Assembly: GCF_018802605.1 (NCBI RefSeq)
Contig: NZ_CP069161.1
Span: 2,356,001 to 2,420,000, forward strand
DNA: 64,000 nt
Source: Paludibacterium paludis
GTDB lineage: Bacteria; Pseudomonadota; Gammaproteobacteria; Burkholderiales; Chromobacteriaceae
Direction of reading: 5' to 3'
Of this stretch, positions 5,461 through 50,561 are shown one piece after another (within the stretch, counting starts at the first letter, position 1; each line of letters opens with the position of its first letter). The notes under the pieces were generated by a model. The model had not been told where the DNA came from and did not search any database. It saw nothing but the letters and a program-made list of their open reading frames with translations. Made by a program: the position numbers and the translations under genes.

Positions 5461-5720
5461 GGAAATTGTTTGGTTTGATAATTCACATGGAAGGATCGAA
5501 GGGGCCGCTCGTCGGCCTAAGCGGACAGTATCTACCAAGAGCCGCGACGTCCGGTTCAGGATTGGAAGCTGTCGTGAAGGTATCGGGGGGGGCGATTCAT
5601 TGACAGATCCAATGGCTTGTAAAACAAGGCAAAATGCCCGTAACATTCATAGGCTGTACTCACAGACAGACCAAATATTCACCTGCACAGGTGTATATTT
5701 CACGTTAGGCAGCCAAGAAC

Positions 5721-15545: not shown

Positions 15546-17369
15546 ATGAAGGCCCACGCCGATTCACCACGCATTCTCGCCGACTCCACCGCGGATACCC
15601 CACTCCGCTCACAGGGAGGCATATCCGTCACCCCTCACCATATCGTCGATGGCAGCCGCCGCGTGCTTGCGGCCAAGACCGTCCAAATGGCGGCGGACCG
15701 AAGTGCCCAGGCCGCCCGCGCAGCCCGCTATCAAGCGATGGCGGACACGCGCCTGGCGGCCAGATCCCTGTCCGCGCCGGCCCCATCCGGCGCGCAAGGG
15801 CTGCCGGACCGGTTGAAATCGGGCATCGAACACCTGGCCGGCCTGCCCATGGACGATGTGAGGGTTCACCGCAATTCCGCCTTGCCAGCCCAGCTGCACG
15901 CCCACGCCTTCACGCAAGGCACCGACATCCACCTGGGCGCCGGCCAGGACCGCCATCTGGCGCACGAGGCCTGGCATGTGGTGCAGCAAAAACAGGGACG
16001 GGTGAAACCGACGATTCAGTTACACGGCGGCGTCGCCATCAATGACGAAAAAGAACTGGAAAACGAAGCCGACCGGATGGGCGAGCGGGCGCAGCGCGGG
16101 GTGCCTGCCCCCATGCCAGCCGCCCCGGGTGGCGCTCCGGCCGTTCATGCCGTCGGCGCCGTCGTGCAACACAAACGGCTTGCCGGACAACCGGCGGAAA
16201 ACATCATCCAGTGCGCCACCAAAACGTCGCTGTACGGCACCTTCGAAACCGAGGCCTATGCGATCAAGGATGGCGCAGAAGGGGATGAGGTCGACTTCAA
16301 CCTGACCTTTCTGCCCAAGGACTCGGCCGACGCGACCAAGGTGGCCCTGGTGCAGGTCGTCAAAAGCGTTTACAAGGGGGATATCGAAGCGTCGACGCCG
16401 AACAACATCGCCAAACAGACGGAACAGGGTCACGAGATCGACCAGCACCCGACCAACCGCAACCCTCTTTACGCCACCGAGGACGAACCGGCCGACAACG
16501 CCGACACGCTGGCGGCCTACGCGACCAACCATCCCTCTATCGGACAGCACGCGATCAAGCGCACTGGCACCTGGGTGCAAAAAGCCCGGCTGATCGATGA
16601 GCCCACCATCGCCGACGAGGCCGACTCGAGCATGGAATTCGAAACCTCGGCCCTGGCGATCGAAGGCAATGATGCCGGCACCTACTACGGCTCGGTGTCC
16701 TGGGGCTGGAAAAACATCACCGGAAACCATGCCGAACTCCTGCCATTCAACCTGGCCTCGCAAGGCGTGCCGACCGCGAATTTTCTGGCGGCGGCGAAGA
16801 AATGGAACAGCGCCAAAGCCAGCACAGGGTTCTACTACACCAAAGCGGACAACACACGCGTGGTCAATGGCAAGGACAAGCTGCTGTTCCTGCTGCCCAA
16901 GGACACCAAAGTCAAATACATAGACGACACCGAGGACGGCTGCATCGAAATGCGCGTGGTGGGTGGCGGGCACGATGGGAAAAAAGGCTACATCAAGGTC
17001 GGCGACCTGAAAGACCGGGGGGACGGCAAGGACACGGTCAAGCTTCCTGTCATGGACAAGGCGCCCGAAGAGGTGAAATGGTTCGTCGCGCAATTCGCGC
17101 GCGCCAAGGAATACGTCGTCGCGGCCTTCATCCGTTTGCCCGATCCGCGCATCGACTACATGAATTTCGTCAGCGAGGCATCGATGCGCAAGCACGGCTG
17201 GAACTCGACCGGGGAAATGTACCGGGATTTGCAGCGGTACAAGAAGGCATTCGAAAAATACGAGCCGCTCGAACAGCTGTACGGCTGGAGCCGTCTTGCC
17301 ACGGTCGGCATGGCGATGAACGGAGGGCGAGCCGCCGGGCCCTCCGAACCACCCGACTACTTTATCTGA
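15546..17369 (+). CDS. DUF4157 (eCIS leader) protein, candidate eCIS cargo 1
   Basis: A 607-aa product. DUF4157 proteins are the typical cargo of eCIS particles. The leader (residues about 85-180) reads MDDVRVHRNS, then HLAHEAWHVVQQKQGR, with HEAWH (near 140) as an HExxH zincin-like motif. It closely resembles the leader of the second cargo gene at 41965. Gly/Ala/Pro-rich linker follows to about 215, and the rest (about 220-607) is a beta-rich module with VQVVKSVYKG, AGTYYGSVSWGWK and FLLPKDTKVKYI, of a type seen in other DUF4157 proteins but of unknown activity. A GGGGGAG ribosome binding site sits 7 bp before the ATG. It lies 1.4 kb upstream of the eCIS operon, apparently as its own unit. 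Confidence 0.88.
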   Translation: MKAHADSPRILADSTADTPLRSQGGISVTPHHIVDGSRRVLAAKTVQMAADRSAQAARAARYQAMADTRLAARSLSAPAPSGAQGLPDRLKSGIEHLAGLPMDDVRVHRNSALPAQLHAHAFTQGTDIHLGAGQDRHLAHEAWHVVQQKQGRVKPTIQLHGGVAINDEKELENEADRMGERAQRGVPAPMPAAPGGAPAVHAVGAVVQHKRLAGQPAENIIQCATKTSLYGTFETEAYAIKDGAEGDEVDFNLTFLPKDSADATKVALVQVVKSVYKGDIEASTPNNIAKQTEQGHEIDQHPTNRNPLYATEDEPADNADTLAAYATNHPSIGQHAIKRTGTWVQKARLIDEPTIADEADSSMEFETSALAIEGNDAGTYYGSVSWGWKNITGNHAELLPFNLASQGVPTANFLAAAKKWNSAKASTGFYYTKADNTRVVNGKDKLLFLLPKDTKVKYIDDTEDGCIEMRVVGGGHDGKKGYIKVGDLKDRGDGKDTVKLPVMDKAPEEVKWFVAQFARAKEYVVAAFIRLPDPRIDYMNFVSEASMRKHGWNSTGEMYRDLQRYKKAFEKYEPLEQLYGWSRLATVGMAMNGGRAAGPSEPPDYFI

Positions 17370-30187: not shown

Positions 30188-31002
30188 CCATCCGCAACCG
30201 CGAATCCCTGAAACGTCATTTCCGTGAAGGCGCGTTGCCGCGCGCCGACCATTTCGGCGACCTGATCGATTCGATGCTCAACATGAACGACGAAGGGTTC
30301 CGCAAATCCGTCGAACAGGGCTTCGAAGTCAGCGCGCCGCAAGGTTATGACGCGCTGATCAGTTTTTTCCGGGAACAGGATCCGGAATTGCCGGCCTGGC
30401 GTCTCGAGCTGGGCGGCGCGCGGGACCCTCTGCTGGTCAAATCGCGCGAGACGCCCGACACCGCAGGCGCGGAGGGCGGATCCGACGCGGCGACGGCCGC
30501 CCGGCTCTGCCTGACGCAGGACGGGCTGGTCGGTATCGGCACGGAGTCGCCGCGCGCCCAACTTGACGTCGCCGGGGTGGTGGCCAGCCATGGCCGGCGC
30601 GGGGCGCCGCCCGCCGGCGTGAGCCTGCCGCTGCTGGCCAATGGCCGATGGCAGGATCTGACCGGCGATCTCGCGGGATGCCAGGCCTTCGAGGTGGTGG
30701 CCGGCGCGGGGCACCAGGGCGCGGGGCGTTTCGGCCTGCTGCACGCGATCGCCCTGAACACCTACAACCCAACCCTCGGCATCTTCAATTTGTTCAACCG
30801 CAAGCGGGGCATCCGCGCCACGCACGGCTATTACAGCCGGCGCTGCGACCGCCTGCAATTGCGCTGGTTCGGCAGCAGCGGACGCAACGCGCGTTACCGG
30901 CTGCAGATCCGCACGGGGTGCGACTTCGGCGAGGGCGTGCGCATCGACGTCCACCTGACGCAATTGTGGTTCGACACGCATATGGATGGACTGCAACCAT
31001 GA
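30184..31002 (+). CDS. eCIS fibre-like/structural protein, unknown
   Basis: A 272-aa product. The first 30 residues (LKRHFREGALPRADHFGDLID) followed by GIGTESPRAQLDVAG, a repeated-type motif seen in tail-fibre and tail-spike proteins, suggest a trimeric fibre shaft with a compact C-terminal beta domain. It has no signal peptide. It may be a receptor-binding fibre, but this is inferred from context and two motifs. It starts in an ATGA overlap with baseplate J. Confidence 0.62.
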   Translation: MTIRNRESLKRHFREGALPRADHFGDLIDSMLNMNDEGFRKSVEQGFEVSAPQGYDALISFFREQDPELPAWRLELGGARDPLLVKSRETPDTAGAEGGSDAATAARLCLTQDGLVGIGTESPRAQLDVAGVVASHGRRGAPPAGVSLPLLANGRWQDLTGDLAGCQAFEVVAGAGHQGAGRFGLLHAIALNTYNPTLGIFNLFNRKRGIRATHGYYSRRCDRLQLRWFGSSGRNARYRLQIRTGCDFGEGVRIDVHLTQLWFDTHMDGLQP

Positions 31003-33488
31003 AACGGGAAGCCGGAACCGATACGGCAGCGAGCGCCCCACGTTTGCCGAGGCGGCGTGAGGACCCGGAACTGGGCTTCGCCGACCTGCGCCGGCGCGGC
31101 ATCGGTAATGCCCAGTCGCTCAGCGGCGAAATCTGGACCGATTACAACCATCACGACCCCGGCGTCACTCTGCTCGAAGCGCTGTGCTTCGCGCTCACCG
31201 GGTCGGTGTTCGGCGCCGAGGCGCGTATCGCGGATCTGCTGACAGCGCCGGACGGCCGCATCCACTACCGGCGGCACGGCATGCACCGCGCCGAGGAGGC
31301 GCTGCCCTGCCGACCGGCGACCCGCTGGGATCTGACACGCTATCTCCTCGACCGCGTACCCGCGCTGCGCCACGCGCGCGTGGACATGCCGGAACGCGAC
31401 GGCGTCTGGCGTCTGGCGTTGCGCGCGCCCGCCGGGCTGGGCGATGCGCTGGCCGCCGAGGCGGCGCGCGCCTTCTGGTCGGCACGCAACCTTGCCGAGG
31501 ACCTCGCCATGCCGCCGGGCATGCTCGCACCGCGCTGGTGCGCATTACGGCTGTCGCTCGGCATAGGGGGGGGCCGGGATCTGACGGATATACTGGCCGA
31601 GCTGGTCGAACGGTGTGACGCCCTGATCGGCATGGCGCCCCCGCGTCATCCTCCGCACAGCCGCCTGAGCCGACTCGGAGACCGGGACGGGCAGGAGGAC
31701 AGCGATGCGCTGTTCGACGGTCCGGTCACACACAACGACTGGATCACCGACGAGGACCTGCGCCGGGAACCGGCGCCGCGACTGCATTTCGCCGACCTGG
31801 CCCGCGAACTCGAAAGCATCGAGGGAGTCGACGCCATTGATCGGCTCGCGCTCGTTCCCCTTGGCGAGGATGCCCCGGACGCCGATGAATCGGGCATCGA
31901 CTGGCAGGGCGAGGGTTGGGCGCTGCAATTGCGCTGGCCGGACACGCCGGCCGATATCGCCTCGTGGACGGTGGTCCGGCGCGGCAGCCGTCTGACCCTC
32001 GATGCCGCCGCGCTGCTCGAGCAGTTGGCGGACCGGCGCAATATCGGCAAGACCCCGGGCGCGGCCATGGCCAGCGCGGTATCGGCACCGCTCGGGCGGC
32101 CCTCCGGGCAGTACATGGCGCCGTCACGCTATCTGTCCTTCTGGCACCATCTGCCGCCCCTCTACCAGTTGGCGCACGCCCCTCCCGCCGCTTCGGCCGG
32201 CATGGCCGCGCAGTTCGGCGGCTATCTGATTCTGCTCGAGCAGTGGCTCGCCCATGGCGACGCCCAGCTCGCGCACCTGCGCGAACTGTTCAGCCTGACG
32301 GCCCAGGCTCAGCGCAGTTACTGGTGGGAGCCGCTCGATGACCGCCACCTGCCGATCCTCGGCCCGAACTCGTCCGAGGCGCGGGAGCGCGCGCTGCGCG
32401 CCGCGGACGAAGCACTCGAGCGGCGCGGCCGCGTGCTGGACTTCCTCCTCGCGCTGCATGGCGAAGGATGCGGACAAAACAGTCTGCAGCGGTTCGGCCA
32501 CTACTTCAGCCCGCGCGACTGGCCGGCGCATCTTTTCGAGTGCAAACGCCAGTTCCTGCTGCGCATTGTGCGCCATACCCGCGACCGCTCGGCGGGATTC
32601 GATTACAGCCGCCCGTCGCTCGGACGCAAGTCCAACACCGCGCCCTTGGCCGAGCGTATCGCGCTGCTGCTCGGTTTCACCCATGCGCACAGCCGCCGGC
32701 TGAACGCCAGGCTCGAGGCGATCGGCTGCGCCGTGAGCGAAACCCGCGGCCCCGAACCGGGCGAGGTCCCGCCGTCCGACCTGCGGCCCTTGATGCTGTG
32801 GGTGCCGGCACGCGAACGCATCGCCGCGCTGTATGCCGAGGATGTACGCGTTGGCCGGGTCGCGGCCCGGCTCGCCCATTATTTCGCCGGGCTCGACCTT
32901 GCCGCGTTGCCCGGTCCCCTGCTGCGCTGCGCGGTGCACGAAGACCGCTATCGCCGCCTTGCCGGCGCCGATACGCCGCTGTGGCTCGGCCCCGACGAAA
33001 ACGGCCGCTGGTGGCCGCTGGATGTGCGCGTCGGCCGCGCCGGAGTGCGCTCTCCGGCCATGTACCTGCACGCATTCGCCTGCGATATCCAGCGCGAGGC
33101 CGAGGGCGTGCATCTGGTGGAACCGGTGCTGCTGCGCCCGTTGGCCGATGGGACAGAACCGGACCGGGCCGGGTACGCCCACCGCATCCTGCTGGTGTTT
33201 CCCGGCTGGACGGCGCGTACCGCCGATCCGAGCTTCCGGGATCTGGCGCGGGAAACCGTCGCGGAGAGTTGCCCGGCGCACATCCTGCCGCAGATCTACT
33301 GGCCCGATGCCGGCGATCTGGCGCGCTTCGAACGAAGTTATGCCGCCTGGCTCGATGCCCGCCAGGTCTACTGTGCGGCGCTGACACACGGCCGCGCGGT
33401 GGACGCCGCGATCACCGGGCACGACCGGCACGCGGCCGACCTGCTGCGGCTCTTCGGAGAGTGGGACGCCGCCGGGGAGCGCTCATGA
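30999..33488 (+). CDS. eCIS second large baseplate-associated protein (Pvc12-like)
   Basis: An 829-aa product in the position of Pvc12. The N-terminal phrase GIGNAQSLSGEIWTDYNHHD, then PGVTLLEALCFALTG, is a gp6/J-type wedge motif seen in eCIS baseplates. No catalytic motif was recognised in the rest. It overlaps the preceding and following genes by ATGA, so translation is likely coupled. Confidence 0.75.
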   Translation: MKREAGTDTAASAPRLPRRREDPELGFADLRRRGIGNAQSLSGEIWTDYNHHDPGVTLLEALCFALTGSVFGAEARIADLLTAPDGRIHYRRHGMHRAEEALPCRPATRWDLTRYLLDRVPALRHARVDMPERDGVWRLALRAPAGLGDALAAEAARAFWSARNLAEDLAMPPGMLAPRWCALRLSLGIGGGRDLTDILAELVERCDALIGMAPPRHPPHSRLSRLGDRDGQEDSDALFDGPVTHNDWITDEDLRREPAPRLHFADLARELESIEGVDAIDRLALVPLGEDAPDADESGIDWQGEGWALQLRWPDTPADIASWTVVRRGSRLTLDAAALLEQLADRRNIGKTPGAAMASAVSAPLGRPSGQYMAPSRYLSFWHHLPPLYQLAHAPPAASAGMAAQFGGYLILLEQWLAHGDAQLAHLRELFSLTAQAQRSYWWEPLDDRHLPILGPNSSEARERALRAADEALERRGRVLDFLLALHGEGCGQNSLQRFGHYFSPRDWPAHLFECKRQFLLRIVRHTRDRSAGFDYSRPSLGRKSNTAPLAERIALLLGFTHAHSRRLNARLEAIGCAVSETRGPEPGEVPPSDLRPLMLWVPARERIAALYAEDVRVGRVAARLAHYFAGLDLAALPGPLLRCAVHEDRYRRLAGADTPLWLGPDENGRWWPLDVRVGRAGVRSPAMYLHAFACDIQREAEGVHLVEPVLLRPLADGTEPDRAGYAHRILLVFPGWTARTADPSFRDLARETVAESCPAHILPQIYWPDAGDLARFERSYAAWLDARQVYCAALTHGRAVDAAITGHDRHAADLLRLFGEWDAAGERS

Positions 33489-38032: not shown

Positions 38033-39362
38033 GACACTCGCCTTGCACGCCGAAGCGCTGCGGCTCGAGCTTGATTGGCTGGAAACCGTGCTGGCCGAAC
38101 GGTTCCGGCAGCATTTCGCCGACAGCGCCGCCGATGTTTCCGCGATGCCCCCTCCGACGCTGCCGGACGGCAGCGCGCTGGCGGAGATGGTGACGAGACT
38201 CGGTCTTGGCGCGCGCGAGCGCCTGGTGCTGGCGCTCGCGCTGGCGCCACACCTGCGCCCGCAAGCGCTCGATCTGTTCTTCGTGAAAAACACCCATTTC
38301 GACCGCGGATTCAGCGAGTTCGGCGGCACCCGGTCGCAACGCCATGCGGGATTCCTGCCCAGCGGAGAAACAGCGGCCTTTCTGGCGGCGGGTGGCAACC
38401 TCGCCGAACGCATCGCGCTGCTCGAGCTCTTTGACACCCGTCATCCGTTCGCGCGCGAAGGCATTGTGCGGCTTGACGGCGACGTGGGCGGAGAGCCGCA
38501 GTTGAGCGCGCTTCTGGAGGTCAGCGCCGAAGCCCTGCAACGATTGCAGTCAGGCGTGTGGCACAAGCCGGATTACAACGCCCGGTTTCCCGCCAAACTG
38601 GTCGAATCGGCTCTGGGGTGGGATGACCTGGTGCTCGCGCCCGACACGTTGGACGAGATCGGCATTGTGCGCGCCTGGCTTGAACGCGGTCCGGCGCTGA
38701 TGAACGAATGGGGCCTGGGGCGGGCGGTCAAGCCCGGTTACCGCTGCCTGTTCTACGGACCACCCGGCACCGGCAAGACGCTCACCGCCACGCTGCTCGG
38801 CCAGAGCGCCGGCCTGGACGTTTACCGGGTCGATTTGTCCATGGTGGTGTCCAAGTACATCGGTGAAACCGAAAAGAACCTCGCGCGCGTGTTCGACCAA
38901 GCGCAGAACCGGCGCTGGATCCTGTTTTTCGATGAGGCGGACGCGCTGTTCGGCAAACGCACCGCCACCACCAACAGTAATGACCGCCACGCCAACCAGG
39001 AAGTGGCCTATCTTTTGCAACGCGTGGAGGATTTTCCCGGGATGGTGATCCTGGCGAGCAACCTGCGCGGCAATATCGACGAAGCCTTTTCCCGGCGTTT
39101 TCAAGCCATGATTTATTTCCCCATTCCCGATGCCGCCCAGCGCCTCTGCCTGTGGCGCAACCTGTGCCGGCCCGAAAGGCTCGGCGACGATATCGACCTG
39201 CCGAAACTCGCCCGGAACCATGAGCTGTCCGGCGGTTCGATGGTCAACGCGCTCGCTTTCGCCGTGTTGCAGGCCTCCTGCGAAGGCGAAACGCGGCTCG
39301 CGATGCGCCATATCGAAGACGGTCTCGCGCGCGAGATGCGCAAGGAAGGGAGACTGTCATGA
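38016..39362 (+). CDS. eCIS AAA+ ATPase (Pvc15-like)
   Basis: A 448-aa product. Walker A is GPPGTGKT (about 249-256) and Walker B is ILFFDEADALF (about 306-316); SNLRGNIDEAFSRRF holds sensor and arginine-finger residues. In eCIS this cytoplasmic ATPase is thought to help load or fold cargo during assembly and is absent from the finished particle. A GGGAGG site precedes the ATG, which lies within the end of the tape measure gene. Its stop overlaps the next ATG. Confidence 0.95.
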   Translation: MSTGAETLALHAEALRLELDWLETVLAERFRQHFADSAADVSAMPPPTLPDGSALAEMVTRLGLGARERLVLALALAPHLRPQALDLFFVKNTHFDRGFSEFGGTRSQRHAGFLPSGETAAFLAAGGNLAERIALLELFDTRHPFAREGIVRLDGDVGGEPQLSALLEVSAEALQRLQSGVWHKPDYNARFPAKLVESALGWDDLVLAPDTLDEIGIVRAWLERGPALMNEWGLGRAVKPGYRCLFYGPPGTGKTLTATLLGQSAGLDVYRVDLSMVVSKYIGETEKNLARVFDQAQNRRWILFFDEADALFGKRTATTNSNDRHANQEVAYLLQRVEDFPGMVILASNLRGNIDEAFSRRFQAMIYFPIPDAAQRLCLWRNLCRPERLGDDIDLPKLARNHELSGGSMVNALAFAVLQASCEGETRLAMRHIEDGLAREMRKEGRLS

Positions 39363-41962
39363 CCGGCAAACGCAACGCTATCCGGCTGGCGGGGCTGGTG
39401 ATGATGTGCCTTGCGCTGTCAGCCCGCTCGTCGCCGGATGAACCGGTGGCGCAACCGTTACCGCTGACAATGACGAAATCCTGCCGGTATCGCGTGGATG
39501 CCTCGCCGCCGGCCGGCGCGTGCTTGCCGGGTGTGGAAGCCCTGAGCCTGCGCAAGTCGCGCGTCACCGCCCTGCCCGCGGCGCGCAAGGACCGTCCCTA
39601 TCTGTACCGTTTCCAGCCGCAAGGCGGCAAACCGCCCTACCGCTTCCTGGAGGTCGGCGAAGGGCTGCCGGCGGGCATCCTGCTGACCCAGGACGGCAAT
39701 GTGGTCGGCAACAGCGGATCGGCCGGACGCCACGAATTCACCGTGGAATTGCGCGACCAGTCGGGGCAGGTGCTGCGCCAGCGGTTTTCCCTGAGCGTGA
39801 CGGAGCCCAAACCGCGTCCGCGCCCCGCGTCCACGCCCGCCGCTTCCGCGCCGGCTCAGCGCGTCATCGAGGCGCTGCCGGACCGCAGCGCCGGAGCGAT
39901 CCTGGCACCGCAGGATGTGTTCGTCAGCTATCTGCTCGGCCAGTCGACGCTCGCTTCGATCAAGCCCGGCAAGCCCAAACCCGCCGGCAACGCGAGCGAC
40001 GCGAAAGCGGACGAGGCGCCATCCCTTGCCGCGTCCGCCCCCGCCACGGCTCCGCCACGCCCGGTACCCGCCGCCAGGATGATGCTGCCGATCGGCCCGG
40101 CGGGCTCGCTGATTCCGCTGGCGAATATCGACCCGACCGCGCCGCTGCCGGGCGACGATCCGGACGAATTCGGTGTCATGCAGGCGACGGCGCCGGTCCG
40201 GGCCGCGCCGATTACCGTCAAACCACCGCCCAAACCCGCCATTCCCGAAGAGCCGGGTATCGGCGAGCTGAGCGAGGCGGCGGTGGCGCAGTTGCGGCAG
40301 ATCCTGACGCCGTTGGTCGGTGTGGAGTATCCCGGCCGCGACCTCTTCGCGGCGGCGCTGGACGCGAAAGTGTGCCGTTTCGCCGCGGAACTGACCAACC
40401 GCGCCGCCCAGGAAAAGCGCCTTGCCTCGCCGACCCCGCGGCAATGGCAAACGCTGTGCCGCACCGCGTGGCTGACACCCCGCGCCGCGCCGCCCGTCGT
40501 CGTGCCTCCCGGGCACGTCAGCTGGCGCGATCTGCCGCGGCGGCTGATGCCGCCGAAGGTGCGCGCTTGGCTCATCGACGCGGCCCGGCAAACGCACCCG
40601 TTCCGTCCGGCCGCCGTGCCGGCGTGGCGCGCCACCGGCTGCAATTGTCTGATGAGCGCGCAACAGGGCAAGGTGGTCGGGTTCTTCCCCGGCTGGCACC
40701 TTCCCCCGAAAAGCCTGCCGCTCGATTTCAGCCTTTACGAGCGGATCCTTACCCTCGCCCAACCGTTCGATGAGGAAGGCCACGTCACGCCCTTGAAACC
40801 GGGAGCGGAAGAGCTCGAGTTTTTCCGGGCGGTGCGCCGATTCGGCAGCAAACTCGACCTGACGCTGTACCGCCGGGACTGGGTGTTCCTGCGCAGGCTG
40901 TCCGAGGCGAAACGCGCGCTGATCGCCCAGACCGCGGCGGCCGAAGCGAGGCTGTTGGCCGATACCCCGCTCGAGCGATTCGGCGCGAACTGGCAGGACC
41001 GCGTGCCGGGCAATGGCGCAGCGCGCCTGGCCGATGGCATCGTGCTGTACCTCGATCAGATTCCGGCGCCGGGCGACGACGGCTATGCGGAGTTCGACGC
41101 CTTCCGCGACGCGCTGATCAAGGCGCTGATCGAAGAGCTGCGCAAGGGCGGGCGCGCCTACACCCTCTCACTCGTCGTCAACGGCAACGATCTTCTCGGG
41201 CTGCGCCAAGCGGACAAGCCCGGTCAGACCGGCGCCCCCGCCTGGACCATCGACAAGCTGTTCAGCTACCTCCTGCTCGCCGAGGATCCAAGGATCGACA
41301 ACCGGCGCATTCTCGCCGGGAAGAACGGCGAAACCGGGCGCACCAATCTGACTTTGCACTACGTGGTGTTGCTGCCCGAACCGGTCAACGACACCAAGAA
41401 AGCGCTGCGTGAACTGGCGGAGCTCTCGCCCGCCCTGCCCGGCAACAACCGCCGGGTGTTCTTGCGCAAGGTGCTGCCGCTGGTCTCGCTGGGCAGCGTT
41501 CCCGAGCAGCCGCTGAAGGACGACATGGCCTACTTCTCGGACAACTTCGGCGGTATGGCGCTGTGGCCCAAACCCGAAGCCGACGCGAAGCTCGCGGCGT
41601 TTTTCGCGCAGTCCGTGCAAAGCGTCATTCTGGGCAACGAGTCGCCCGAGACCCCTGTCTGCACCGTGGTATGCGACTGGCGCTGGCCGTTGCGCGCGCT
41701 GTTCGGACTGTTTCTCGCGGCGGGCCTCGTCTCGCTCCTGCTGTACGCCGTCTCCTGCCGAGTACGCGCCCTGGGGCGGCCCTATCAGCTCTACCTGATC
41801 GCCATCGCGATCGTCCCCATCGTCATCGGCACGTTACTGATGTCCTGCGACCCCGACCTCGTGCGCCTCGGCCTGAGCACCTACCTGCTCGTCGCCGTGC
41901 TCGCCGCGGTCATCCTGAGCCTGCTCATCCCGCTGCTCAAGCCGAAAGTGGAGAAACCGTGA
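39359..41962 (+). CDS. eCIS-operon membrane protein with Ig-like and GH18-like domains
   Basis: An 867-aa product. Residues about 8-24 form a signal peptide, about 60-150 an Ig-like beta domain (PYLYRFQPQGGKPPYRFLE), and about 150-330 an Ala/Pro-rich linker. About 430-745 resemble a GH18 chitinase-like barrel: VVGFFPGW at the first strand, ADGIVLYLDQ where GH18 has the DGxDxDxE signature, and FGGMALWPK near the final strand. The catalytic acid is not conserved, so it may be a non-enzymatic glycan binder. Three TM helices follow at about 778-800, 809-828 and 839-860. It overlaps the ATPase stop. Association with the eCIS is positional. Confidence 0.65.
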   Translation: MTGKRNAIRLAGLVMMCLALSARSSPDEPVAQPLPLTMTKSCRYRVDASPPAGACLPGVEALSLRKSRVTALPAARKDRPYLYRFQPQGGKPPYRFLEVGEGLPAGILLTQDGNVVGNSGSAGRHEFTVELRDQSGQVLRQRFSLSVTEPKPRPRPASTPAASAPAQRVIEALPDRSAGAILAPQDVFVSYLLGQSTLASIKPGKPKPAGNASDAKADEAPSLAASAPATAPPRPVPAARMMLPIGPAGSLIPLANIDPTAPLPGDDPDEFGVMQATAPVRAAPITVKPPPKPAIPEEPGIGELSEAAVAQLRQILTPLVGVEYPGRDLFAAALDAKVCRFAAELTNRAAQEKRLASPTPRQWQTLCRTAWLTPRAAPPVVVPPGHVSWRDLPRRLMPPKVRAWLIDAARQTHPFRPAAVPAWRATGCNCLMSAQQGKVVGFFPGWHLPPKSLPLDFSLYERILTLAQPFDEEGHVTPLKPGAEELEFFRAVRRFGSKLDLTLYRRDWVFLRRLSEAKRALIAQTAAAEARLLADTPLERFGANWQDRVPGNGAARLADGIVLYLDQIPAPGDDGYAEFDAFRDALIKALIEELRKGGRAYTLSLVVNGNDLLGLRQADKPGQTGAPAWTIDKLFSYLLLAEDPRIDNRRILAGKNGETGRTNLTLHYVVLLPEPVNDTKKALRELAELSPALPGNNRRVFLRKVLPLVSLGSVPEQPLKDDMAYFSDNFGGMALWPKPEADAKLAAFFAQSVQSVILGNESPETPVCTVVCDWRWPLRALFGLFLAAGLVSLLLYAVSCRVRALGRPYQLYLIAIAIVPIVIGTLLMSCDPDLVRLGLSTYLLVAVLAAVILSLLIPLLKPKVEKP

Positions 41963-41964
41963 CC

Positions 41965-42600
41965 ATGAAAGCCCGTGAACACGCCCCCCGGACAAGCACC
42001 GACACCCATGATGCCCCCCGTCAGCCCAAAGGCGCGCTGCAACGGCAGGTCGACGAAAGCCCGCGCCAGCTCGCGCAAGGAGAACGGCTGGCGCAACTGC
42101 AAGCCGACACGCACCCCAACGGCCTACCCGCTCAACTGAGGCACGGCATTGAAAACCTTTCGGGCCTGGACATGGGCGACGTACGCGTGCACCGCAACTC
42201 GGACAAGCCCGCGCAACTGAACGCCCACGCCTATGCGCAAGGCAGCGACATCTACCTGGGACCGGGACAGGACAAACACCTGCCCCACGAAGCCTGGCAT
42301 GTGGTTCAGCAGAAACAGGGACGCGTCAGGCCGACGGTACAGATGCAAGCTAACATTCTATTGAATGATGAAAATAAATTAGAAAAAGAAGCCAATGTAG
42401 CTGGAGAGAAAGCACTACAGCCAATCAATATGGATACCTCGAAAAAAGAAATTTATCAATTTCACAACAAAAACATCATCCAAATGTCCAATAAAAAGGA
42501 AGAAACGGGCAAAAAGAGAAACAACAAGGAGGTCGATAACAAAACCAAAACACCTAACAAAAAAATAAAAAAAACACTTACAAAGAGAAAGATGACGTAA
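41965..42600 (+). CDS. DUF4157 (eCIS leader) protein, 5' half of candidate cargo 2
   Basis: A 211-aa frame. The leader matches that of cargo 1: MGDVRVHRNSDKPAQLNAHAY, then GPGQDKHLPHEAWHVVQQ, with the HExxH motif near residue 108. Composition changes from GC-rich to AT-rich near 42345, although leader homology runs to about 42417. The tail is Lys/Asn-rich and ends TKRKMT. It stops 26 bp after a run of 8 A residues (42567-42574); a -1 shift there joins the next frame. Without a shift, only leader plus a short basic tail is made. It starts 2 bp after the GH18-like gene stop, as the last gene of the operon. Confidence 0.85.
   Translation: MKAREHAPRTSTDTHDAPRQPKGALQRQVDESPRQLAQGERLAQLQADTHPNGLPAQLRHGIENLSGLDMGDVRVHRNSDKPAQLNAHAYAQGSDIYLGPGQDKHLPHEAWHVVQQKQGRVRPTVQMQANILLNDENKLEKEANVAGEKALQPINMDTSKKEIYQFHNKNIIQMSNKKEETGKKRNNKEVDNKTKTPNKKIKKTLTKRKMT
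42559..42574 (+). other. Slippery A7-T-A8 tract with -1 frame change
   Basis: AAAAAAA-T-AAAAAAAA. In the leader frame codons AAA AAA at 42568-42573 are preceded by A, so A_AAA_AAA is a canonical slippery heptamer. Frame -1 is open from 42558 to 43955. Alternatives are sequencing error in a homopolymer, phase variation, or polymerase slippage. Confidence 0.8.
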
Positions 42601-42824
42601 CTCTAAAAATATTAAAAGAAACCCTGCAAAATAACAAAGAAAAATCCAACCAAGAAAAATCCAACCCAGAAATATACGAGCGGAATAATGCACAAAAAAA
42701 TTTTAACGAAGCTTTAACTCTTATAAAGGACAACTACAAAACAGCTCCAGAGGAGGGAAGGATAGCATACCAAAAAACACTATCGGAATACCTCGGAAAA
42801 AATCTCGACAGAATACCACGAGAT

Positions 42825-43955
42825 ATGAAGGACTTTTATTTGTCTATATTTTATAATGCAAAAAGCACTGAAGCAGAAAAAGAGTTTTCTAAAATAACTG
42901 AAACTTTCAAAAAAGAAACAGAAATGTCAACTGGCAGAGCAACATTTAGTACCACCCCTAGAGAGCATGCCGGACATAGATGTACGCTGAAAGATCTATT
43001 TGGCGCTGAATCATTATCAAATGAAATAGATCAAGACGAACCTCAGGCCAAGCTTGGCAAAAACGCCTCGGCTGAAATATCAGCAGCCACAATCGCACCT
43101 AAACAGATAGAACGAGACTCTGCTCCAGCAGGTTATAGTAAAATCGCGGCAAATGAAATATACCTCCTCACAGGCATACCGCCCAACATGCAACCTGTCA
43201 CCTTTGACGCCGGCCATCTAATTGGCGACCAATTAATCGGCGGCTTATTCAACTCAAATAAAGAAGGCAATATCACACCTCAGATCACCAAATTTAACAC
43301 TCCAGCGTATGTCAACGCATTGGAAAATCCAATAAAAAATGCGGTAGACCCAAATCCAGAAAAGCACAACAAGACCAATTCCACCGAAGTAAAAAATAAA
43401 GAAAATCACGTAAGGATAGAATATAAAGTAGATCTTGAATATGATTCTGATTTCATCATACCAACAAAGAAACTTGTATATGCAAAAATAATCAAAGGGG
43501 ACATAGATGAAACAGCAAATAAAATCACAATAAATAAAAAAACTTTCCCCATAAATCATGAAGTCAAATTCAATAGATCAATACCCAGCAAATGGAGTGC
43601 TTCGGCGAAATCCGCAGACAAAAAAACACCAATACATATAAAAACCACTAGAGAAGCGAAAACATTCAAGAACCTTGTTAAAAAGCATGAAGAAAAAAAA
43701 GATCTGTCCAACACTCCTGAATTCAAATTCACACTAGAACACACAGACAATGGAAAACTGAAACAATATCCAATTAACGAAAAGAATAGAAAAGACAAAA
43801 ACGCTGGGAAAGACGACTTACACCTCAACTCTATAACATACATTCCAACACCGAAATTTAGCATAACAAAAGAAGATGCCATTCTTGCCTTAAAAAAAAC
43901 ATTTCCATATATAAGCGAAAACGAAATTATAGAGCTATTTGCCAATAAAAAATAA
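42825..43955 (+). CDS. AT-rich C-terminal part of cargo 2: endonuclease-like domain
   Basis: A 376-aa product from the first ATG; the open frame actually runs back to 42558 and reads through with a -1 shift from 41965, giving about 663 aa. The motif FDAGHLIGDQLIGGLFN followed by NITPQITKFN and YVNALEN resembles DNA/RNA non-specific endonucleases (Endonuclea_NS_2 type: DxGH, N, E residues). No signal peptide or TM helix. AT content and Lys/Asn richness contrast with the rest of the window, so it was probably gained by transfer. No immunity gene is evident. Nuclease activity is inferred. Confidence 0.72.
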   Translation: MKDFYLSIFYNAKSTEAEKEFSKITETFKKETEMSTGRATFSTTPREHAGHRCTLKDLFGAESLSNEIDQDEPQAKLGKNASAEISAATIAPKQIERDSAPAGYSKIAANEIYLLTGIPPNMQPVTFDAGHLIGDQLIGGLFNSNKEGNITPQITKFNTPAYVNALENPIKNAVDPNPEKHNKTNSTEVKNKENHVRIEYKVDLEYDSDFIIPTKKLVYAKIIKGDIDETANKITINKKTFPINHEVKFNRSIPSKWSASAKSADKKTPIHIKTTREAKTFKNLVKKHEEKKDLSNTPEFKFTLEHTDNGKLKQYPINEKNRKDKNAGKDDLHLNSITYIPTPKFSITKEDAILALKKTFPYISENEIIELFANKK

Positions 43956-43963
43956 CCAAACAC

Positions 43964-44543
43964 AAATCGATGGGTCGCTCTGGTGTATCAATGGTTCGAA
44001 CGTCCGCGCGCATACAGTCGCGGCTGGGGCGAAAAAAACGCACCGGCGAATGAGTCGGCTGATCACGCTTTGGGACGCCGTAGAGGGGGATGGGGAACCA
44101 AGCTCCCTATCGTCACCGATGGTGCCGGCTTGCCGCTGAAGGTGAGGCTCAGCCCCGGCCAGTCTCATGAGTCCCGGTATTTTGAACTCTTGCTTGAGGC
44201 CATCCGGATTGGCCGTCGGAGCGGAACGGTACGGCAACGACCGCAAAGGGTGGCGGGTGACAAGGGGTACAGCCATCGATGGATTCGTCAATGGCGGCGT
44301 AAGCGGGGAATACCGGCCGTCATTCCCGAGCGTAAAGACCAGAGAGCCCACCGTCGGGGCCGACCGCCCAAGTTCGAACGGGAACAGTATAGGCGGCGCA
44401 ACGTGATCGAACGCTGTCTTGGCTGGCTCAAAGAAGCGCGCGCCGTAGCGACACGCTACGAAAAACTGGCGCTACATTATTTGGCAAGCATTCACATTGT
44501 CATGATACGACGATATTTGAGGGCCTTAGCAAACAGAGCCTAG
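43964..44543 (+). pseudogene. IS5-family transposase remnant
   Basis: Residual DDE transposase. The reading frame from about 43964 (GSNVRAHTVAAGAKK) shifts -1 at an A7 run (44032-44038) to ADHALGRRRGGWGTKLPIVTDG. The rest of the transposase (LSPGQSHESRYFE, VAGDKGYSHRWIRQW, RRRNVIERCLGWLKEARAVATRYEKLA) continues to 44543. The N-terminal about 130 residues of a full-length IS5-like transposase are missing, and the fragment abuts the cargo 2 stop. A right terminal repeat near 44523-44545 is plausible but unproved. Confidence 0.85.
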
Positions 44544-48901: not shown

Positions 48902-49082
48902 ACCTTGTATGGCGATTACCGTCCGTTTCGTGCGGGCGGACCTTATCCGGAAAAAGCGGTCGGCGCTCTTCTTTCCTGTCTAACGTCATACACACGCTTT
49001 CTTGTCCATGACATGATATCGGAATACGTGAAGCATGATCGAACCCCCGATTCCGCGACGCCTCATGAGGAGCGCCCTGCCC

Positions 49083-50561
49083 ATGGCGACAGAAACCGAA
49101 TTGACACTGCGCTTGCCGCCCGGCCGGAATGCCGTTTTCCGCCGTTTCATCGCCCGGCACGCGGGCGAACACAACGGCCCGGTACGGGAGCGTCTGCGCC
49201 GCATCCACTACGACACCGAGGATGTCTCGCTGGCGCGGCACGGCCTGAGCCTGTGTCTGATCCGGCAGGACGGGCGATGGCGGCAATGTCTGACGCGGCG
49301 GGGACGGAGTAGCCGAACACCACGAACCGTTGAGATGCCCCTGAACGGGCCGGCACCGGGCCTGCATGGATTCGCCGGAACGGCAATCGGCAAGACCCTG
49401 GCAAAAGCGGTCGGGAACCACGCCATCGTCCCCCGGTTTTCCGAGACGTTGATCCGGACCGTCTGGATCGTGGGCGGATCGTCCGGCCGGCGGATCCGCG
49501 TACAACTCGATCAGGGCTCGCTGCGCGGTAACGGCCGGATGTTCGCCATCAACGATGCGACCTTTGCGCTCGAGCAGCAGGGGCCCGCCGAGGCCCTGTA
49601 CGCGCTGGCGCTGGAGGTGGCCGCCCGCTTGCCCGTGGAGCCGGTCGCTTCCGACCCCGGCGCGCGCGGCCGCATGCTATACGAGCCCGCGCAAGCGCCC
49701 GCGCCGTCACGGGCATGCCGCTTGGAGCCCGAATCGGGAGAAACCCGTTCCGGAGCCTTCCGTCTCGTCGTCCGCGAGTGCCCGCGCCATTTGCGCGCCA
49801 ATGTTCCGGGCATTCTTGACCGCTCCGACCCGGAGTGCATCCACCAGGCTCGCGTGGCGTTGCGCCGGCTGCGCAGCGCGCGCGCCCTGTTCTTGCGTGC
49901 GCAAACGGACGATGCCTGGACGATCATCGACACCGAAGCGCGCTGGCTGGCCGGCCGGCTTGGCGCCGTGCGCGATCTGGACGTGTTTCTGGATGAAACA
50001 CTGGCTGGCGCGGGAACCAATCATGACGACATCACGGCGCTGGCTGCCGCTATCGCGGCAAAGCGCGAAGCGAGCCGTGGAGAGCTGGCGGCAGCGCTGA
50101 CGTCGTCCCGTTACGGCCTGTTTTTGCTTCGTCTGACGCTCTGGCTGGCGCAAGACGGAACCGGCAAGACCGCATGGAACGGATTCGCCCGCCGTGCGCT
50201 TGAGCGGCGCAGGCGCGCGCTCGAAAAGCCCCCCCCTGTCGCCGGCAAGGAGAAAAAACGGCACATATTGCGCAAACGGGCGAAGAAGCTGCGCTATGCG
50301 GCGGAATTTCTCGCGTTCCGGTTCGATCGCCGGTCCGTTCGGCGTTATCTCGCGCCACTGAACGATCTGCTTGCCGTTCTGGGCCGGATGAATGACGCCG
50401 CCGTGGGGCGCGCCCTGCTGCTCCGGCTCGCCGAAGACACTCCATCGCTCGCACCGGCCGCGCGGACGGTGATCGCCCGCCTCGACGCCATGGAAAGCCG
50501 CAGGAAACCACAATTGGCGCGCGCTCGCCGGCGGTTGAGACATACCTCTGCGTTCTGGTGA
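49083..50561 (+). CDS. CYTH-CHAD domain protein
   Basis: A 492-aa product. The N-terminal CYTH triphosphatase-like domain (residues 1-215, opening ETELTLRLPPG, where the canonical ExExK has R in place of K) is followed by a CHAD domain (about 240-490: IHQARVALRRLRSARALF, KRHILRKRAKKLRYAAE) rich in basic residues. CHAD proteins bind polyphosphate. The start at 49083 was chosen because the domain begins there; ATGs at 49035 and 49065 are alternatives. It is convergent with the HD-GYP gene. Confidence 0.87.
   Translation: MATETELTLRLPPGRNAVFRRFIARHAGEHNGPVRERLRRIHYDTEDVSLARHGLSLCLIRQDGRWRQCLTRRGRSSRTPRTVEMPLNGPAPGLHGFAGTAIGKTLAKAVGNHAIVPRFSETLIRTVWIVGGSSGRRIRVQLDQGSLRGNGRMFAINDATFALEQQGPAEALYALALEVAARLPVEPVASDPGARGRMLYEPAQAPAPSRACRLEPESGETRSGAFRLVVRECPRHLRANVPGILDRSDPECIHQARVALRRLRSARALFLRAQTDDAWTIIDTEARWLAGRLGAVRDLDVFLDETLAGAGTNHDDITALAAAIAAKREASRGELAAALTSSRYGLFLLRLTLWLAQDGTGKTAWNGFARRALERRRRALEKPPPVAGKEKKRHILRKRAKKLRYAAEFLAFRFDRRSVRRYLAPLNDLLAVLGRMNDAAVGRALLLRLAEDTPSLAPAARTVIARLDAMESRRKPQLARARRRLRHTSAFW

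What the first reader, a model, noticed from the sequence alone, without database searches (positions are those of the whole stretch)
42559..43955. Cargo 2 is split by an A8 tract: programmed -1 frameshift, slippage, phase variation or error
The DUF4157 leader frame ends at 42600, yet the -1 frame is open from 42558 and encodes the nuclease-like domain. The switch point is A7-T-A8 with A_AAA_AAA in the leader frame, a classical slippery site. A -1 shift gives about 663 aa. If functional, it would set the ratio of leader-only to toxic product.
Basis: partly seen in the sequence, partly recalled or inferred. Interest (0 to 1): 0.8.

Follow-up and report, generated by a model that had tools for sequence, protein, structure and literature searches.

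The report
Frame-broken cargo of a contractile injector
A gene for a probable DNA/RNA-cutting protein that a phage-tail-like injector would deliver is split into two reading frames at a run of A bases, and the evidence points to an ordinary one-base slip (in the cell or in the sequencing) more than to a built-in frameshift switch.

Summary
A 211-codon leader ORF (41965-42600, eCIS_core/DUF4157) ends while the -1 frame is open from 42558 to 43955 (465 codons, PF13930 nuclease), with A7-T-A8 and an in-phase A_AAA_AAA in the 43-nt overlap. Programmed frameshifting is not supported. No downstream RNA structure and no Shine-Dalgarno at the stimulating distance was found. An A8 run and an in-phase slippery heptamer are unremarkable in this AT-rich gene (chance 0.17-0.25 per 42 nt). 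Of 100 other distinct complete eCIS_core ORFs none shows this split just after the leader, although 37 carry in-phase A_AAA_AAA. Seven database proteins join an eCIS_core leader to a matching nuclease region in one ORF, and the stretch before the second ORF's first ATG already looks coding. So this is most likely one former gene whose frame was broken by an indel at a slip-prone tract. A real mutation, leaving the cargo off or nearly off, is preferred over a sequencing error, which cannot be excluded without reads. Leaky slippage, phase variation or two separate genes remain possible. The nuclease half is the most diverged of its family and shorter than all 14 relatives. Interest is low to moderate.

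The parts
39359..41962 (+). ORF of 867 aa just upstream of the cargo; its counterpart in same-genus genome G004 (842 aa, 48% identical over 822 columns) is also followed at once by an eCIS_core cargo gene
41965..42600 (+). Leader ORF, 211 aa, ATG 2 nt after the upstream stop; ends at TAA 42598-42600
42124..42321 (+). eCIS_core (DUF4157, PF13699) domain, residues 54-119 of the leader, with HEAWH motif
42558..42600 (+). 43-nt overlap in which the -1 frame is open before the leader frame ends; a -1 change that links the two must lie here
42559..42565 (+). A7 run
42567..42574 (+). A8 run; A_AAA_AAA in leader phase at 42567-42573
42526..42533 (+). AAGGAGGT, Shine-Dalgarno-like, but about 36 nt from the motif (stimulating range 6-17 nt) and with no ATG/GTG/TTG of the -1 frame before 42825; probably chance
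   Evidence: range from PMC4066793 passages
42601..42824 (+). Stretch between leader stop and first ATG of the second ORF, coding-like in the -1 frame (no stops against 5 and 3; position score 1.3 against -19.7 and -17.8; 0.7% of shuffles reach it)
42558..43955 (+). -1 open frame, 465 codons: lysine/glutamate-rich, probably helical linker, then nuclease domain
   Evidence: helices only from a low-confidence model
42825..43955 (+). 376-aa ORF from the first ATG of that frame, the form held in the protein database (P0003); no Shine-Dalgarno at usable spacing
43191..43370 (+). Endonuclea_NS_2 (PF13930) match; keeps AGHLxxDQL, NxxPQ, NxPxY shared by all 15 aligned, but not every column that the other 14 share
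43966..44542 (+). IS transposase remnant (DDE_Tnp_1), 97% to a copy at G000:C1:3074803; begins and ends inside that copy's transposase region, so cut at both ends

Best explanation
This is one cargo gene of an extracellular contractile injection system: a DUF4157/eCIS_core leader, a linker and a non-specific nuclease domain. Its reading frame is broken by a one-base length change within the 43-nt overlap, most likely in the A7-T-A8 stretch, its most slip-prone part. Read as it stands, the ribosome makes a 211-aa leader-only protein. The nuclease half has only a weak in-frame start at 42825 and would lack the leader, so the cargo is off or nearly off. I put a real slipped-strand indel at about 0.44 and a sequencing or assembly error at about 0.28. 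Shown here: the two frames, the domains, coding character before the ATG, single-ORF relatives, no frameshift stimulator found, no such split in the relatives read. Inferred: that the leader loads the nuclease into the particle, that the break is young (no second frame lesion in 1.4 kb), and that the product is lost.
For: Single-ORF proteins of this make-up exist: 7 of 14 listed proteins matching the nuclease region (query P0004 included) carry PF13699; 6 of these 7 also have a nuclease Pfam (PF13930 or PF01223), the seventh (P0017) matches by sequence only. P0004 matches both halves. The -1 frame is coding-like before its first ATG. In genus-mate G004 both cargo genes at the same place are single ORFs. 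Of 100 other distinct complete eCIS_core ORFs, 7 end less than 120 aa after the core, and none of these has an overlapping frame of 80 or more codons; here it runs 452 past the stop. GeneTack's authors see unclustered frame breaks confirmed by BLASTp and Pfam as sequencing errors or indels (PMC3711429, passages). For mutation over error: an IS remnant 10 nt after the stop; a nuclease half shorter than all 14 relatives by 107-267 residues and keeping only 27 of 43 columns invariant in the others; one contig at 100% completeness.
Against: The same GeneTack paper expects BLASTp-confirmed singletons to be sequencing errors more than indels. No second isolate and no reads were available. My scan of 464 kb for other frame breaks did not list cargo 2 itself, so it is blind to AT-rich cases and weak as a control. 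It gave 6 candidates without a near start (none at a run of 6 or more) and 30 with one, not examined; 5 of the 6 were checked by Pfam, none confirmed, 4 of them with no Pfam hit at all. Relatives of the nuclease half are distant (27% identity), so the ancestral frame across the linker cannot be read from them; the divergence may be a separate subfamily and not decay.
Confidence: 0.72

Rival explanations
1. Sequencing or assembly error at the A tract: the cell carries one continuous frame and makes a normal cargo. (Part of the 0.72 above; the confidences here overlap and do not add to one.)
For: Homopolymers are common error sites (general knowledge). The rest of the 465-codon frame is open. 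GeneTack's authors expect BLASTp-confirmed singletons to be errors more than indels (PMC3711429, passage).
Against: One contig, 100% complete. Two of the three 8-base runs outside this gene lie in long open ORFs (G8 31566-31573 in 30648-33488; C8 50229-50236 in 49035-50561); these are G/C runs, and the third (G8 5585-5592) was not assessed. Two further A8 runs in the -1 frame do not break it.
Confidence: 0.28
2. Phase variation: tract length changes in the population switch the injector cargo on and off, and this isolate was caught off.
For: A8 and A9 tracts do act so elsewhere: V. cholerae wbeL (A8) and manA (A9), reversal shown for manA only (PMC3441752, passages). In this genome two 97%-identical IS copies have A7 and A10 at the same place, so A runs do change length. 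19 of 100 other eCIS_core ORFs carry A8 or longer in the cargo part.
Against: Tract-length variation could not be looked for; the A8 count is what composition predicts; none of the 100 other ORFs read shows an off version just after the leader.
Confidence: 0.12
3. Leaky recoding: RNA polymerase slippage on A8, or spontaneous ribosomal slippage, gives a small share of leader-nuclease product.
For: Slippery heptamer in phase. Runs of 8 are thought productive for some IS elements (PMC1088944, passage). T6SS tssM1 is read through an A11 tract (PMC4256274, passages).
Against: Avoidance of A/T runs is usually seen from 9 on (PMC1088944). Frameshift-prone heptamers without stimulator gave 2.1-10 times a background of about 0.055% in E. 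coli, so below about 1% (PMC4066793, section 17; my arithmetic).
Confidence: 0.1
4. Programmed -1 ribosomal frameshift that sets the ratio of leader-only to nuclease-bearing product.
For: A_AAA_AAA in the leader phase in a short overlap.
Against: No 3' structure (MFE -3.3, z 0.34; 20 windows with z -0.62 to 0.34; pseudoknots not modelled); no Shine-Dalgarno within 6-17 nt; no such split in relatives; heptamer weaker than A_AAA_AAG (PMC5009743, passage).
Confidence: 0.03
5. Two separate genes: a leader-only DUF4157 protein acting in trans and a nuclease started at ATG 42825.
For: DUF4157 genes beside, not fused to, toxins are known, and a chaperone role in trans has been suggested (PMC11297309, passages). 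Of the 7 short eCIS_core ORFs, 4 are followed within 600 nt by an ORF of 120 aa or more, 2 of them within 100 nt. 7 of 14 listed relatives, P0006-P0008 among them, lack PF13699.
Against: No Shine-Dalgarno at 42825, and the stretch before it looks coding in the same frame. In a low-confidence model (mean pLDDT 58) residue 90, the ATG, lies inside a run of helices from residue 2 to 124.
Confidence: 0.1

Closest known systems
eCIS-associated toxins with N-terminal DUF4157/eCIS_core (PMC8213781; PMC11297309; passages read)
   Same: DUF4157 leader, linker, C-terminal enzyme domain, place at the 3' end of an eCIS cluster
   Different: Here leader and enzyme lie in two frames; in the relatives listed they are one ORF
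eCIS_core + PF13930 proteins of the database: P0004, P0005, P0009, P0014, P0015
   Same: Same two domains; AGHLxxDQL, NxxPQ and NxPxY shared
   Different: Single ORFs; they go on 205-252 residues past the point where cargo 2 stops; in BLASTP with P0004 the match begins only at residue 171 of the -1 frame, so the linker is unmatched
C. rodentium tssM1, read through an A11 tract by transcriptional slippage (PMC4256274, passages)
   Same: Premature stop shortly after an A run in a contractile-injector gene
   Different: A11 against A8; there both products were shown and needed; nothing shown here
V. cholerae O1 wbeL/manA poly-A phase variation (PMC3441752, passages)
   Same: A8/A9 run in a coding sequence, a slip gives an early stop
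   Different: Variation and, for manA, reversal were observed; here one sequence only

Membership tests
eCIS-associated toxin with DUF4157 | eCIS_core (PF13699) domain at the N-terminus | tested here: met
   E 4.1e-12
eCIS-associated toxin with DUF4157 | Encoded at the end of an eCIS cluster | tested here: met
   Sheath, tube, spike, baseplate and AAA ORFs upstream in the window
eCIS-associated toxin with DUF4157 | Leader and toxin domain in one polypeptide | tested here: not met
   Two frames; met in 7 of 14 listed relatives of the nuclease region
DNA/RNA non-specific endonuclease (PF13930) | Profile match above the curated cut-off | tested here: met
   29.6 bits, cut-off 27
DNA/RNA non-specific endonuclease (PF13930) | Conserved residues of the family kept | tested here: inconclusive
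   27 of 43 columns invariant in the other 14 rows are kept, the AGHLxxDQL motif among them; each other row keeps 27 of 27-31. Which residues are catalytic was not tested
Programmed -1 ribosomal frameshift | X_XXY_YYZ heptamer in the upstream frame | tested here: met
   42567, chance 0.17-0.25
Programmed -1 ribosomal frameshift | Stimulator: 3' structure starting 5-8 nt on, or SD 6-17 nt before | tested here: not met
Programmed -1 ribosomal frameshift | Site and overlap conserved in homologues | tested here: not met
   0 of 100 other eCIS_core ORFs have a long overlapping frame just after the leader; no close homologue of the nuclease half was found in which the site itself could be compared
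Transcriptional slippage site | A run of 9 or more | tested here: not met
   A8; 8 may suffice in some organisms (PMC1088944, passage)
Transcriptional slippage site | Transcripts of several tract lengths | not testable with these tools
   No RNA data
Phase-variable locus | Tract length differs among cells or isolates | not testable with these tools
   One assembly only

The most novel reading that the evidence does not exclude
The A tract is a working contingency or leak switch on an injector cargo: most cells make only the DUF4157 leader, and rare slipped transcripts or slipped cells make the self-harmful nuclease form, so that a population loads it without poisoning itself.
Probability: 0.1. 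Interest if true: 0.6.

Novelty: new member of a known kind. Interest (0 to 1): 0.25.

Why it matters
As a broken member of a known toxin kind it mainly warns annotators: the database holds the nuclease half as a stand-alone 376-aa protein without its leader. If tract-length switching of an injector cargo were shown, it would offer one answer to how a producer tolerates such a nuclease.

Tried and rejected
Programmed frameshifting was tested by RNA folding, Shine-Dalgarno scan, Rfam (no match at gathering score) and a survey of relatives, and rejected as the leading reading. Relatives of the nuclease half: none in plasmids, phages or viral contigs; none in the 60 other genomes; none in the 398 other genomes (order); in the 397 other genomes (phylum) one weak 55-residue match, G550. 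A profile search of solved structures gave nothing useful (8 matches, best E 0.082, none named a nuclease). NCBIfam gave one match far below its cut-off for the leader and none for P0002 and P0004; PADLOC none. The structure model of the -1-frame piece is poor (mean pLDDT 58.1, pTM 0.46); I ran no fold search on it and claim no fold. The idea that AAGGAGGT at 42526 drives internal initiation failed: no ATG/GTG/TTG of the -1 frame lies before 42825. An earlier argument of mine, that the nuclease half keeps every invariant residue, was withdrawn: it keeps 27 of 43 columns that the other 14 rows share.

Limits of the survey: it used a strict motif (HE-x-[WG]-H, QQ, QG), so loci such as L034 and L064 gave no row; 9 duplicates and 7 ORFs running off a locus end were dropped. 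Eleven other ORFs, and cargo 1 of the window, have a frame of 80 or more codons past their stop, but only after 283-706 aa beyond the core; I took these for next genes or shadow frames and did not examine them, so later breaks in those are not excluded.

Full report
What is there. The window is G000:C1:2356001-2420000 of a 4.07-Mb single-contig genome. Genome G004, placed in the same genus by the tool, has a contig of 429,009 bases, the same length as the contig of a protein named from Paludibacterium purpuratum (P0026). From this I infer that the window comes from a Paludibacterium (Chromobacteriaceae). The window holds an eCIS cluster: sheath, tube, spike and baseplate ORFs, an AAA ATPase and an 867-aa ORF, then cargo 2. 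The genome search found two eCIS_core genes, both in the window: cargo 1 (15546-17369, one ORF of 607 aa) and cargo 2.

The split. The leader ORF starts 2 nt after the upstream stop and ends at 42600; the -1 frame is open from 42558 to 43955. The tract is A7-T-A8 with A_AAA_AAA in leader phase at 42567. The leader has PF13699, the -1 frame PF13930. The open -1 frame is far beyond chance.

One gene or two. Of 14 listed proteins matching the nuclease region (P0004, the query, among them), 7 carry eCIS_core in the same ORF; 6 of these have a nuclease Pfam too and one matches by sequence only. P0004 matches the leader at 54% over 117 columns and the nuclease half at 27% over 306. The 224 nt between leader stop and the first ATG of the second ORF have no stop in the -1 frame (5 and 3 in the others) and the base-position pattern of the rest of that frame; 0.7% of shuffles score as well. 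The ATG at 42825 has no Shine-Dalgarno at a usable distance. In G004 the counterpart of the upstream ORF (48% identical over 822 columns) is followed by two tandem eCIS_core cargo genes, each one ORF, of 303 and 450 aa. A poor model of the -1 piece puts the ATG codon (residue 90) inside a run of helices from residue 2 to 124. Against this, 7 of the 14 relatives lack PF13699, and leader-only eCIS_core ORFs with a separate ORF behind them do occur. I conclude that cargo 2 was probably one gene.

Is the slippery site special? Three A8 runs lie in the AT-rich part (2.6 expected); two more A_AAA_AAA lie in phase in the -1 frame, which stays open across them (43694, 43892). Random 42-nt stretches of shuffled codons contain an in-phase slippery heptamer with probability 0.25 (leader part), 0.17 (-1 frame) or 0.18 (both), and 82 of 451 real stretches of the -1 frame do. 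The RNA after the site is no more structured than shuffles (MFE -3.3, z 0.34; 20 further windows, z -0.62 to 0.34). The nearest upstream Shine-Dalgarno-like sequence is about 36 nt away, against 6-17 nt taken as the stimulating range in PMC4066793 (passages). [quoted passage not shown] coli (PMC5009743, passage). Both are E. coli results.

Survey of relatives. A scan of genome contigs with the leader alignment gave 79 loci, from the best 80 of 541 relatives. Together with loci from whole genomes and the window, 102 distinct complete eCIS_core ORFs were read (drops and limits under Tried and rejected). Of the 100 others, 7 end within 120 aa of the core, and none of these has an overlapping frame of 80 codons or more. 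Thirty-seven of 100 carry 64 in-phase A_AAA_AAA in the cargo part; after these the -1 frame stays open for a median of 9 and at most 31 codons, and at 2 of 64 sites (near the gene's end) the -1 product would be slightly longer. The sites are not enriched near the leader: 17 of 9616 codon slots in the first 300 nt, 47 of 30744 beyond. So a frame change after the leader is not a habit of this gene kind in the sample read.

Mutation, error or switch. GeneTack's authors hold singleton breaks confirmed by BLASTp and Pfam for sequencing errors or indels, and expect those confirmed by BLASTp to be errors more than indels (PMC3711429, passages); this counts for an error. Against an error: the assembly is one contig at 100% completeness, and two of three other 8-base runs lie in long open ORFs (the third was not assessed). 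A codon-score scan of 464 kb gave 36 candidate frame switches, 30 with a start codon near (not examined) and 6 without, none of these at a run of 6 or more. Five pairs were checked by Pfam, none was confirmed and four had no Pfam match at all; the sixth (L123) was not checked. That scan did not list cargo 2 itself among the six, so it is a weak control. The held protein P0003 lies on 2 contigs, but so does another protein of the window (P0018), so these are probably two records of one assembly and not independent evidence. For a real lesion: an IS remnant starts 10 nt after the stop and is cut at both ends; all 14 relatives continue 107-267 residues past the end of cargo 2; and of 43 columns invariant in the other 14 rows cargo 2 keeps 27, while each other row, left out in turn, keeps 27 of 27-31. 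This may be decay or a distant subfamily. For a switch: A8/A9 tracts vary in V. cholerae (PMC3441752, passages), and two IS copies here have A7 and A10 at the same place. None of this shows variation at this tract. On checking I moved 0.03 from mutation to error because of the GeneTack expectation; the sum is unchanged.

Known literature. In the held library, DUF4157 with frameshift, extracellular contractile injection with programmed frameshift and Paludibacterium with contractile injection gave 0 papers; contractile injection system with frameshift, toxin and pseudogene gave one off-topic review (listing only). PMC11297309 and PMC8213781 (passages) describe DUF4157 fused to or next to toxins and leave its role open.

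Verdict. Observation confirmed; programmed frameshift not supported; a frame-broken eCIS nuclease cargo is most likely, real indel preferred over error, with phase variation, leak or two genes not excluded.

Noticed in passing
L105 (G000:C1:3074000-3077000) 528-1569; window 44032-44038: A 97%-identical IS copy elsewhere in the genome has an A10 run (L105 870-879) where the window remnant has A7, and its transposase reads as successive overlapping ORFs; whether the A10 run links them was not tested. A-run slippage is known from IS elements (PMC1088944, passages).
   Followed up: partly
window 43955-43966: Only 10 nt separate the cargo stop from the IS remnant, while all 14 aligned relatives continue 107-267 residues further; cargo 2 may also be trimmed at its 3' end.
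   Followed up: partly
window 15546-17369: Cargo 1: eCIS_core leader in one GC-rich ORF with a C-terminal part without Pfam match.
   Followed up: no
L103 5082-5993 and 6164-7516: Same-genus genome G004 has two tandem eCIS_core cargo genes, C-terminal parts without Pfam match, at the place of cargo 2: perhaps a cargo-swapping site.
   Followed up: partly
window 42558-43067 (P0002 residues 1-170): Long linker of cargo 2, unmatched in the BLASTP with P0004.
   Followed up: no
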